From IMG/VR virus record IMGVR_UViG_3300017917_001910, positions 1-64,000 of that record: a DNA stretch of 64,000 bases; one strand, 5' to 3'. Under the pieces are notes generated by a model. That model was given only the letters and a program-made list of their open reading frames with translations. It was not told the DNA's origin and ran no database searches. Of the stretch, positions 33,501-36,390 are shown piece after piece. Source of the stretch: a virus. The position numbers were made by a program, and so were the translations under genes. The first letter of the stretch is position 1, and each line of letters starts with the position of its first letter.

Positions 33501-34667
33501 TTATCCTAAAGAATTTCCTAAAAGTTCTGAATATTTTGTAGCTAAAGATTTTCGTGTTACTGAATCTTCATCCATCTCTGTTTTTGTTTCTCTTCCTTTA
33601 ACAGATGATTCTTGATACATATCAATTCTACCATTTGACATATTAAGTTTAGTTGGTAATGTTAATCCATCTGGCCCGAAACGATTCTTAATAAAATGCA
33701 CTCTTCCTGTACCTGCAATCTTATCTGTTGTTTTTCTTGCTAATGAAATAATAACATCTCCAATCATAATCTTACTAAATGAAGAAGCTACTTGATCTGA
33801 TGTAATAATATCAGATTCTACAGAAGATCTATTTGCTTGAGATGCCGTAACAACTGGTATTTGATATTCTCCGGCTAATCCTCTTAAATCTTCATATGTA
33901 GTTTCTAATTCTTCATGAAGTTTTTCTTTTGCTTTTGCTGAACGTAATAAATCTGCATAATCTACAATAACAATATCAGGTTTTACTCCTTGCATTATCA
34001 TTTTATCTAAATGAGCTTTTAATGTCGTTACAGATGCTGTTTTTGTCGGAAAGAACTTTAAATATAATTGTCCTTTTAATTTAGATAATTCATGCTCAAC
34101 TTCTTCTAAGTTATATTTTAAATTTGCAGTCGCTATTCCAGTAACTACTGAGTCATATCTTTGAGCTACATAGGGCTCTGATAATTCCATTGTATAATGG
34201 ACTACTGTTTTTCCTTGTCTTAATAAATGAGCTCCTACATTAATCATCGAAGTAGAGTTATGTGATAAAATACCATTACTATAATAACAATTAACTTCGT
34301 CTACTGTAATATCATATAAAGATTCATACTTATCTAAATATTTCAACTCTTTTAGATATGTCGTTCCTAATTCAGTTTCTATAATATCAGAAGGTTTAAT
34401 ATTTAATACTTTAGTCCAGCCATCTTGTGTTTTTAATAAATGATGTGATGAACATTGTAAAGTTTTATTATTTCCGAAATAACATGTTACTTTTTGTTGA
34501 ATTTCTGTTCTAAATAAAGAAGTTATACTTTTATATCCATATGGAGTAAGTACTTTAACATGGATATCAGGTATAACTTCTATATTAGGCGTATTTGGTA
34601 TTTGATATTTATCAAATAATTCTTTAATAGTTATAGTTTCTTGTTTATTTCGTTTAATTAATTTCAT
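33501..34667 (-). CDS. 41: Helicase C-terminal half with C-intein (gp41/DnaB-like)
   Basis: Residues 1-137 are the C-intein: TPYGYKSI (41-48), block B-like CSSHHLLKTQDGW (72-84), and YDITVDEVNCYYSNGILSHN ending in the splice-site His-Asn, followed by Ser138 as the +1 residue. Residues 138-388 are the helicase RecA-like core: STSMINVGAHLL completes the Walker A motif after splicing, PDIVIVDYADLL is Walker B, and VVTASQANRSS the sensor. The protein is expected to splice in trans with the product of 35602..36390. The start overlaps the endonuclease stop by 14 bases. Confidence 0.85.
   Translation of the reverse strand: MKLIKRNKQETITIKELFDKYQIPNTPNIEVIPDIHVKVLTPYGYKSITSLFRTEIQQKVTCYFGNNKTLQCSSHHLLKTQDGWTKVLNIKPSDIIETELGTTYLKELKYLDKYESLYDITVDEVNCYYSNGILSHNSTSMINVGAHLLRQGKTVVHYTMELSEPYVAQRYDSVVTGIATANLKYNLEEVEHELSKLKGQLYLKFFPTKTASVTTLKAHLDKMIMQGVKPDIVIVDYADLLRSAKAKEKLHEELETTYEDLRGLAGEYQIPVVTASQANRSSVESDIITSDQVASSFSKIMIGDVIISLARKTTDKIAGTGRVHFIKNRFGPDGLTLPTKLNMSNGRIDMYQESSVKGRETKTEMDEDSVTRKSLATKYSELLGNSLG
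34257..34667 (-). other. C-intein segment (137 residues)
   Basis: Codons 1-137 of 33501..34667, ending SHN before Ser138 (34254-34256). It already contains ITIKELFDKY and VKVLTPYGYKSI, text that in most inteins belongs to the N-terminal half, so the break lies unusually close to the intein's start. Confidence 0.8.
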
Positions 34668-35559
34668 ATATAAATTTTATGACTTGATCTAATATAATAT
34701 CTTTTTTGGATTTCCAATCCGATTCCCATATAATAAAAATGGAATAATTAAGTGCTTCTAGGTCTTTGCATCGAGAAGCATCTTTATTCCATTGGTCATC
34801 AACAAGATACATTCCTCCTGGCTTTTTAATATAATCTCCAGACTTATATATTTTTGGATTACAGTGCCAATAATCTCCATTTACTTCAATAATTTTATTA
34901 TCAACTTGAATATCTACAATATATGAAGTATTAGATATCTTTTTATTAAATTTAAACACTTTATCTTTGCAAAGAGATTTAATATTTTCCTGAATTAATC
35001 TTTCTAATTTAGATACACATCCGGTATTATTATGTTGATCACCAAAATTTTTATCTAACCATGCTTCTTTACCAATTAATGCAATTTCATTTAATTTATT
35101 TCTTCTTGTAGCATTACTTTGCTTTATTTTAGCTTCTTTGGTATGTGAATGACCTAAGAACTTTTTTGATTTAGCACTGGCTATTGATTGATATTCTTTT
35201 AATTTATTACTAGCTTCTTCATGAGACAATCCGTTATTTAAATAATAATCAATAGATCTTTTAGAACCTTTTTTACTTTTTAATTTTGAAGCTTCTTGTA
35301 TTTTTAAAATTTCTACGGGGTCTGATATATTACGTTTAGCATAATATTCATCACAGAATTTATTTCTTTCTCTCTGACTAATGGACACTTGCAATTTAGA
35401 TTCTTCTTCAGTATATCCTAAAGCTAGCCAATATTCTATTCTATTATTGTTAATAGGAGGCGTGCCATTAGAATTAAATCTTTTCTTTTGATCTTCCCAT
35501 TTACGAAGACCTTCTACTTCGCCGTACTTTTTAATCCAAGCTTGTTTTACAGATGCCAT
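34654..35559 (-). CDS. EDxHD (Vsr-like) homing endonuclease between the intein halves
   Basis: 301 residues. The motif order is E186 (SKLERL), D216 (YIVDIQ), E225/D229 with H232 (IIEVNGDYWHCNP) and the later Asp/Arg text WNKDASRCKDL, then FIIWESDW, as in Vsr-like homing enzymes. Basic repeats in the first half (SKLKSKKGSKRSID, SATRR-like) probably bind DNA. It is encoded between the N-terminal and C-terminal helicase genes, as in the fractured genes with split inteins described by Dassa and colleagues. It likely cuts an uninterrupted helicase allele. Confidence 0.85.
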   Translation of the reverse strand: MASVKQAWIKKYGEVEGLRKWEDQKKRFNSNGTPPINNNRIEYWLALGYTEEESKLQVSISQRERNKFCDEYYAKRNISDPVEILKIQEASKLKSKKGSKRSIDYYLNNGLSHEEASNKLKEYQSIASAKSKKFLGHSHTKEAKIKQSNATRRNKLNEIALIGKEAWLDKNFGDQHNNTGCVSKLERLIQENIKSLCKDKVFKFNKKISNTSYIVDIQVDNKIIEVNGDYWHCNPKIYKSGDYIKKPGGMYLVDDQWNKDASRCKDLEALNYSIFIIWESDWKSKKDIILDQVIKFIYEIN

Positions 35560-35601
35560 ATTCTTTATTATAAATATATAAATAATAAAGTTTTTATATA
35601 T

Positions 35602-36390
35602 TTATTTTTCCTGGACCTGGACCTGTAAAAGGTTAATTACTTCATGCCCTTGAATTTTATGATTATCTATTTCATATATGGTAAATGGATCAATCCAAAA
35701 TATAAAAGGCATTCCTTGAGAATTAATCATTTCAATACCTAACTCTTCATACTGTATATCTATAGACGTATTAGGCCCTATACATTTACCAGCACCAGGC
35801 CCTGCCACAAATATAATAAGCTCTCCTTTACCAATACCGCCATCAACCAATTCATTAAATGCAGTCCAAGGTGTAGGTAAAGTTATTCTAGCTGATTCTT
35901 CATAACGTAATTTAACATCTTTTAAATATTCTAATCCAATATCTTGATTAGCCCCTGCTTTCATTGCAGTATCAATTTTCTTTTTGATATTATCATATTC
36001 TCCTGATTGTAATAACTCAACAGATTCGATAATAGCTTTTTTAATACATTGATTTTTACAGAAGTTAACACACTCTGTTTTGACAAAATCTAAATCTTCT
36101 GCTTCAACATATCTTAATATATCTTTTAAAGATTCTACAATAGACAATTTTAAAGGTTCAGATGTAAGTTCTAATGCCTTTACTTTAAATACTTCTAATG
36201 TAGGTACTGTTTTATATTCTGGATAGTATTTCATAATAATACCTACAATCCAAATATTAGCTTCAGAATCAAAATATTCAGGTATTAAAATATCGAATAT
36301 TTGTTGAAGAAATGTTTTATCTTTTATAAGTGCCGCAATTATTTTTAATTGAAAGGTCTTTCCGTACTGCGTAAATCTATCTTGACTCAT
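35602..36390 (-). CDS. 41: Helicase N-terminal half with N-intein (gp41/DnaB-like)
   Basis: Residues 1-202 are a DnaB/gp41-type N-terminal domain and linker followed by the start of the ATPase domain (LPTPWTAFNELVDGGIGKGELIIFVAGPGAGK). At residue 203 the Walker A motif GPGAGK stops and Cys203 opens the N-intein CIGPNTSIDIQYEELG. The last 45 or so residues (MINSQGMPFIFWIDPF...) are not typical intein text. Splicing with 33501..34667 would rebuild GPGAGKST. The replicative helicase therefore depends on protein trans-splicing. Confidence 0.85.
   Translation of the reverse strand: MSQDRFTQYGKTFQLKIIAALIKDKTFLQQIFDILIPEYFDSEANIWIVGIIMKYYPEYKTVPTLEVFKVKALELTSEPLKLSIVESLKDILRYVEAEDLDFVKTECVNFCKNQCIKKAIIESVELLQSGEYDNIKKKIDTAMKAGANQDIGLEYLKDVKLRYEESARITLPTPWTAFNELVDGGIGKGELIIFVAGPGAGKCIGPNTSIDIQYEELGIEMINSQGMPFIFWIDPFTIYEIDNHKIQGHEVINLLQVQVQEK
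35605..35784 (-). other. N-intein segment (60 residues, functional part probably shorter)
   Basis: Codons 203-262 of 35602..36390. Only the first 16 or so residues resemble the conserved intein start C-x-x-x-x-T-x-I. The rest lacks the usual block text, which is found instead at the start of the C-intein. An out-of-frame GPGPGK is encoded just before the stop codon (about 35,608-35,625). Confidence 0.7.

What the first reader, a model, noticed from the sequence alone, without database searches (positions are those of the whole stretch)
33501..36390. Replicative helicase split inside Walker A by a split intein
The N-terminal protein ends ...FVAGPGAGK|C and the C-terminal protein begins an intein ending ...SHN|ST. 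Trans-splicing would restore GPGAGKST. An EDxHD homing endonuclease is encoded between the halves, as in fractured genes described in metagenomic phage data. Phage replication would depend on protein trans-splicing at the ATP-binding loop.
Basis: partly seen in the sequence, partly recalled or inferred. Interest (0 to 1): 0.75.

Follow-up and report, generated by a model that had tools for sequence, protein, structure and literature searches.

The report
Helicase split by trans-splicing intein
In this phage the gene for the enzyme that unwinds DNA is cut in two inside its ATP-binding loop by a mobile DNA element, and everything in the sequence says the two protein halves are stitched back together by a self-removing linker (a split intein); the arrangement is of a known kind, but it is a new family, found in about 18 phage lineages, with an odd copy of the target sequence in front of the element's DNA-cutting gene.

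Summary
Confirmed. The DnaB-like helicase is encoded as N-half (36390-35602, minus strand) and C-half (34667-33501), with an EDxHD/Vsr-type homing endonuclease gene between them. The break falls between GPGAGK and ST of Walker A. Joining the exteins gives 454 codons, colinear without gaps with uninterrupted helicase genes of close relatives (98.9-99.1% aa). The 115-kb record holds no second helicase. The intein has C1, an SxxH block B, terminal HN and S+1. It is atypically split: IntN 60 aa, IntC 137 aa. Contiguous homologues at the same site (L241, L228) show the split lies where the endonuclease gene sits; the family's model has the HINT fold. I found about 18 lineages with this split intein at this site, with the endonuclease intact, decayed or deleted. 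Two phages share 99-100% identical intein DNA within 78-85% identical exteins, indicating recent homing. Intein halves are under strong purifying selection. Trans-splicing itself was not tested. Two additions: (1) some relatives carry a second, canonical split intein, so their helicase is in three pieces; (2) a P-loop-like sequence precedes the endonuclease gene in most endonuclease-bearing lineages and in none that lost it, resembling the I-TevI operator. New variant of a known kind.

The parts
35785..36390 (-). N-extein of the DnaB-like replicative helicase, 202 aa, ending ...FVAGPGAGK (Walker A up to its Lys)
   Evidence: PHROG 19 positions 159-366; 98% identical and colinear with intact helicases
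35602..35784 (-). IntN, 60 aa plus stop; begins CIGPNTSIDIQY; residues 1-53 correspond to the contiguous intein of L241, residues 54-60 are tail
   Evidence: homologous IntN in about 18 lineages; contiguous homologue L241; dN/dS 0.08
35591..35626 (-). target-like element: ACAGGTCCAGGTCCAGGAAAA (peptide FTGPGPGK in the -1 frame) followed by ATAAATATATAAAAA; overlaps the end and stop of IntN and lies 47 nt upstream of the endonuclease start
   Evidence: 15/21 nt identical to the window's own P-loop DNA; same element in other endonuclease-bearing lineages, absent from endonuclease-less ones
34654..35559 (-). EDxHD/Vsr-type homing endonuclease, 301 aa (E186, D216, H232, D260 invariant)
   Evidence: hmmsearch to Vsr endonuclease E=8e-4; Foldseek top hit I-Bth0305I catalytic domain; A9 alignment
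34257..34667 (-). IntC, 137 aa, MKLIKRNKQETITIKELF...GILSHN; start overlaps the endonuclease stop by 14 nt
   Evidence: Pfam Intein_splicing E=4e-6, below the curated cut-off; PDB inteins DnaX, gp41-1, CatC, VidaL; dN/dS 0.04
33501..34256 (-). C-extein of the helicase, 251 aa plus stop, beginning STSMINVGA (Walker A Ser/Thr = +1 nucleophile)
   Evidence: PHROG 19 positions 367-601 and Pfam DnaB_C; 99.6-100% identical to intact relatives

Best explanation
A mobile class-1 (C1, S+1) split intein with a free-standing EDxHD homing endonuclease gene lies in the Walker A codons of the phage's DnaB-like replicative helicase. The N-half ends in IntN and the C-half starts with IntC. After separate translation IntN and IntC associate, complete a HINT fold and splice: acyl shift at Cys1, transfer to Ser+1, Asn cyclisation. 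This restores GPGAGK-ST and a 453-aa helicase. The endonuclease most likely cuts the intact P-loop sequence of intein-free phages in mixed infection and copies the insert into them. The split probably arose when the endonuclease gene entered a contiguous mini-intein in the loop after its first strands. Shown: anatomy, exact empty site, contiguous homologues, HINT and Vsr-type folds, purifying selection, recent horizontal transfer in sister phages. Inferred: that splicing occurs, that the endonuclease cuts the P-loop, and the order of events.
For: Exact split at PHROG 19 positions 366|367. Colinear joined exteins and empty site in relatives at 96.4-97.9% nt identity; about 120 loci with an intact gene at the same place. 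Intein motifs and PDB intein matches. AF2 model of the contiguous homologue L241, pLDDT 90, matching intein structures at Z 15-19. Contiguous inteins at the same site in L241 and L228. Endonuclease matches Vsr and I-Bth0305I. dN/dS of IntN/IntC 0.04-0.08, near the exteins and below the endonuclease's 0.09-0.25. L056 and L057: intein DNA 99-100% identical, exteins 78-85%. No second helicase in the record. The endonuclease is lost in L056, L221, L229, L251 and L258 while both intein halves persist, as expected if splicing is indispensable.
Against: No splicing was measured. The block-F histidine found in most relatives (VHCYY) is Asn in the window (VNCYY); L250 has Gly there, so its loss is probably tolerated but could slow Asn cyclisation. 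The record is 115 kb against 197 kb for a relative, so a second helicase elsewhere is not strictly excluded. Cleavage by the endonuclease is inferred only.
Confidence: 0.93

Rival explanations
1. The halves are not spliced but reassemble non-covalently, as reported for the split nrdA of phage Aeh1 and the split DNA polymerase of Aeromonas phage 25; the intein remnants are relics.
For: Such split genes with inserted endonucleases exist (PMC2988022).
Against: The break separates Lys from Ser/Thr of Walker A, with 60 and 137 foreign residues at the two ends. Cys1, SxxH, HN and S/T+1 are kept and the intein has dN/dS 0.04-0.08. Sequences keep both halves after losing the endonuclease.
Confidence: 0.03
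2. The gene is a pseudogene in a defective genome or an assembly artefact, and the phage uses another helicase.
For: The record is incomplete.
Against: Independent contig with the same arrangement; exteins under strong purifying selection (dN/dS 0.01-0.04); same architecture in about 18 lineages; no other helicase in the record.
Confidence: 0.02
3. The intervening sequence is an RNA-level element (group I or II intron).
For: EDxHD endonucleases also occur in group I introns (I-Bth0305I, from memory; an outgroup in phage group II introns, PMC12350094).
Against: No Rfam match in the window; reading frames run into recognisable intein parts at both ends; contiguous in-frame homologues exist.
Confidence: 0.01
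4. About the P-loop-like element only: it is a leftover of the endonuclease gene's original insertion next to a P-loop sequence, or is refreshed by gene conversion with the P-loop, not an operator.
For: Another EDxHD gene in a close relative (L026) has a copy of its target gene's start on each side. The core often resembles P-loops of related phages. Deletions in L056 and L221 begin inside it.
Against: A neutral leftover should have decayed over the divergence seen (IntC 42-60% identical to the window's in other lineages), yet it is recognisable in most endonuclease-bearing lineages and tied to the endonuclease.
Confidence: 0.35

Closest known systems
Fractured genes with split inteins and EDxHD endonucleases (Dassa et al. 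2009; gp41-1, gp41-8, NrdJ-1, IMPDH-1)
   Same: Gene broken in two by a split intein with a free-standing Vsr-like EDxHD endonuclease gene between the halves, in phage metagenomes; helicase among the hosts; 6QAZ gp41-1 is a sequence and fold match.
   Different: Those inteins are split at the canonical site with a long IntN (from memory; PMC7090010, lists them as split at site S2). Here the split is between blocks A and B and the insertion is inside Walker A. The original paper was not held, so whether it contains a Walker A case could not be checked.
Atypically split inteins: AceL-TerL (IntN 25 aa), VidaL, PolB16 OarG (IntN 15 aa)
   Same: Short IntN, long IntC carrying blocks B, F and G; VidaL is the best profile and Foldseek match.
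   Different: IntN here is 55-74 aa with an extra conserved segment (FWIDPF...GxxV); host gene, site and the accompanying endonuclease differ.
P-loop (site b) inteins of bacterial DnaB, e.g. M. smegmatis DnaBi1
   Same: Inserted in the P-loop of a DnaB-family helicase, with the P-loop Ser serving as +1 nucleophile (PMC6195587).
   Different: DnaBi1 is contiguous, class 3 and without endonuclease; here the intein is split, has Cys1, and lies in a T4-type phage helicase.
I-TevI operator (T4 td intron)
   Same: A homing-site-like sequence just upstream of the endonuclease gene: 15/20 nt there (PMC2988022), 15/21 nt to its own P-loop here.
   Different: Different nuclease family (GIY-YIG), intron not intein; no promoter or binding shown here.

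Membership tests
Split intein (HINT superfamily) | N-terminal Cys/Ser nucleophile, C-terminal Asn (usually HN), Ser/Thr/Cys at +1 | tested here: met
   C1, HN, S+1 in the window and in the relatives examined
Split intein (HINT superfamily) | HINT fold formed by IntN plus IntC | tested here: met
   AF2 of the contiguous homologue L241 (its IntC part 54-56% identical to the window's), pLDDT 90; Z 15-19 to intein structures. The window's own two-chain complex was not modelled.
Split intein (HINT superfamily) | Removal restores an uninterrupted host protein | tested here: met
   Joined exteins colinear with intact helicases, 0 indels
Split intein (HINT superfamily) | Protein trans-splicing activity | not testable with these tools
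   needs co-expression
Atypically split intein | Split between blocks A and B, block B on IntC | tested here: met
   IntN 60 aa, IntC 137 aa carrying the SSHH block B; L241 contiguous alignment
Fractured gene | Endonuclease gene between the two halves, encoded separately | tested here: met
   ORF 35559..34654
EDxHD/Vsr homing endonuclease | Vsr-like catalytic domain with E, D, H, D | tested here: met
   hmmsearch Vsr E=8e-4; Foldseek 3r3p I-Bth0305I, E=2e-3; E186, D216, H232, D260 invariant in A9
EDxHD/Vsr homing endonuclease | Cleavage at or near the intein-free target | not testable with these tools
   only the sporadic distribution and recent transfer were seen
Endonuclease autorepressor (I-TevI-like) | Homing-site-like sequence upstream of the endonuclease gene | tested here: met
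   P-loop PSSM p<=0.011 in 9/14 endonuclease-bearing lineages, 0/5 endonuclease-less
Endonuclease autorepressor (I-TevI-like) | Overlap with a promoter; binding and repression | tested here: inconclusive
   An ATAAAA-like stretch follows the element, but no genome-wide promoter motif was recognised; binding needs experiment

The most novel reading that the evidence does not exclude
The EDxHD endonuclease of this split-intein family represses its own gene by binding a non-cleaved mimic of its P-loop target kept just upstream. Intein-associated endonucleases and unrelated intron endonucleases such as I-TevI would then have reached the same control independently. In some relatives the helicase is assembled from three polypeptides by two different split inteins.
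Probability: 0.45. Interest if true: 0.65.

Novelty: new variant of a known kind. Interest (0 to 1): 0.57.

Why it matters
An essential replication enzyme that is dead until two polypeptides are spliced at its ATP-binding loop ties phage replication directly to a mobile element. The family shows contiguous, split-with-endonuclease, decayed-endonuclease and endonuclease-free states at one site, a nearly complete series for how an endonuclease turns an intein into a split intein. It provides many new atypically split inteins, and phages with two different split inteins in one protein (natural orthogonal pairs). The target-like element makes autorepression by an intein-associated endonuclease directly testable.

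Tried and rejected
(1) I first thought the IntN tail GHEVINLL was a copy of the extein GELIIFV; the contiguous inteins of L241 showed that this segment belongs to the intein, so only the GxGK-like stretch is kept as the target-like element. (2) DNA local alignment of insert against target was not significant one locus at a time; the conserved element appeared only with more lineages. (3) A similar element before uvsX endonucleases: a hint in L041 only, none in L044, L266 or L267; none before the second helicase endonuclease of L222. (4) A genome-wide late-promoter motif matching the ATAAAA stretch: not found. (5) RNA introns: no Rfam match. (6) genome contigs: 37 pattern matches, none a relative. 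(7) Dassa et al. 2009 was not held, and paper searches found no description of a Walker A split intein in a phage helicase; absence from this library is weak evidence of novelty. (8) Foldseek of the endonuclease gave only marginal E-values for the catalytic domain, and the model's N-terminal part is low confidence.

Full report
OBSERVATION. The three reading frames are as described. The helicase N-half (36390..35602, minus) ends its extein at GPGAGK and continues with C1 of IntN at 35784. The C-half (34667..33501) starts with 137 aa of IntC ending SHN and resumes helicase at Ser (codon starting 34256). The PHROG 19 helicase profile is split with no residue missing or repeated, positions 159-366 and 367-601. 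The endonuclease lies at 35559..34654; its stop overlaps the IntC start by 14 nt.

EMPTY SITE. Searches of viral contigs gave the same split gene in one near-identical contig (L025+L002, 98-99% aa) and many relatives with an uninterrupted helicase. Joining the window's exteins gives 1362 nt, equal in length to the intact genes of L003 (96.4% nt, 98.9% aa) and L026 (97.9% nt, 99.1% aa), with GPGAGK|STSM continuous. About 120 loci are intact at this site (some contigs are counted more than once as overlapping loci). The window's 115-kb record has no other helicase, only this intein and only this endonuclease. The 197-kb relative has one helicase, uninterrupted.

IT IS AN INTEIN. IntC matches the Pfam intein model weakly and PDB inteins (DnaX, gp41-1, CatC, VidaL); the family profile matches VidaL and gp41-1 best. 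Two relatives carry contiguous, in-frame inteins at the same Walker A position: L241 (188 aa) and L228 (172 aa). The L241 model (AF2, pLDDT 90) matches intein structures at Z 15-19. Alignment with L241 places the split after residue ~53, where the endonuclease gene sits. Block B is thus on IntC, the atypical split arrangement known from AceL-TerL, VidaL and PolB16 (PMC11766414, PMC10189870).

THE ENDONUCLEASE. The profile matches Vsr endonucleases (E=8e-4); the best structural match is the I-Bth0305I catalytic domain, then Vsr. E186, D216, H232 and D260 are invariant.

FAMILY AND MOBILITY. IntC searches and scripts gave about 18 lineages with the split intein at this site. The endonuclease is intact in the window, L057-L059, L218-L220, L222-L224, L237, L238, L242, L244 and L250, a remnant in L041, and absent in L056, L221, L229, L251 and L258. 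L056 and L057 share 99-100% identical intein DNA in exteins of 78% and 85% identity, so the element moved recently. Between more distant lineages intein and extein divergence are similar or the intein is somewhat closer. dN/dS is 0.04-0.08 for intein halves, 0.01-0.04 for exteins and 0.09-0.25 for the endonuclease: the intein is needed, the endonuclease less so.

MECHANISM. Until splicing, Walker A is broken between Lys and Ser/Thr, so neither half can be an ATPase (inference). The P-loop Ser doubles as +1 nucleophile, as in M. smegmatis DnaBi1 (PMC6195587). Trans-splicing is inferred from anatomy and selection, not shown. The window has Asn where most relatives have the block-F His; this might slow the last step.

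THE TARGET-LIKE ELEMENT. At or just after the IntN stop, upstream of the endonuclease gene, stands DNA that reads like the P-loop: GPGPGK (window), PGIGKS (L041), SGIGKS (L057), VGIGKT (L058), TGIGK (L220, L222), GSGKTT (L223), GNGKS (L238), DSGKST (L237). Its frame relative to IntN varies, so it is not conserved as part of IntN. A matrix built only from 77 distinct intact P-loop 21-mers finds it at p<=0.011 in 9 of 14 endonuclease-bearing lineages (L041's endonuclease is a remnant), and in none of five that lost the endonuclease (p 0.12-0.65). The strict pattern GGNNNNGGNAAR occurs in 10/14 against 0/5 (Fisher p=0.011; about 0.1 expected in total from shuffles). Caveats: lineages are related, the pattern was noticed in the first few, and L244, L224 and L250 lack it or have it eroded. 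The closest precedent is I-TevI, whose operator upstream of its ORF matches its homing site at 15/20 nt and mediates autorepression; I-TevII and I-TevIII have similar putative sites (PMC2988022). The window's element matches its own P-loop at 15/21 nt. I favour an operator at 0.45; a leftover or gene-converted copy is the main rival. uvsX endonucleases show no consistent equivalent.

THREE-PIECE HELICASES. L222 and L224-L226 have, besides the Walker A split intein, a canonical split intein at SQxxR|C...HN|S; L222 has a second EDxHD gene there. Their helicase is encoded in three pieces and needs two trans-splicing reactions. L228 and L241 combine a contiguous Walker A intein with the second split one.

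VERDICT. The kind (fractured gene, split intein, EDxHD endonuclease) is known, and P-loop inteins in DnaB are known; the combination, its atypical split and its spread are a new variant. I could not read the founding paper, so a Walker A case there cannot be excluded.

Noticed in passing
L026:1740-3080 (197-kb relative of the window's phage): The 5'-3' exonuclease gene carries a different EDxHD endonuclease gene. The original gene start (up to VDGTNF, then TAA) lies to its left and a diverged second copy of the start (...MVIDGTNF) to its right, apparently rebuilding the gene's beginning, with a possible frameshift in a T10 run.
   Followed up: partly
L222:2007-5810; L224:1932-4595; L225, L226: Helicase encoded in three pieces by two different split inteins (Walker A, atypical; SQxxR|C, canonical), in L222 with two EDxHD genes.
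   Followed up: partly
L041:303-2293, L044:1126-2893, L266, L267: uvsX recombinase split at GDxW|TTSGG by another atypical split intein with an IntN of only 15-20 aa and its own EDxHD endonuclease.
   Followed up: partly
L241:347-1600: uvsX region with two inteins in a row, one of them the contiguous form of the GDxW|TTSGG intein; the same phage also has a contiguous helicase P-loop intein and a second split intein.
   Followed up: no
L223:4245-5876: Next to the fractured helicase, the ribonucleotide reductase gene is apparently broken by another split intein (IntN-like end), followed by a GIY-YIG-like ORF.
   Followed up: no
window:37484-39100: The phage encodes a GroEL-like chaperonin of 538 aa.
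   Followed up: no
L056 and L221, junctions after IntN: Independent deletions of the endonuclease gene both begin inside the target-like element and keep the IntC start, as if the element were a break point.
   Followed up: partly
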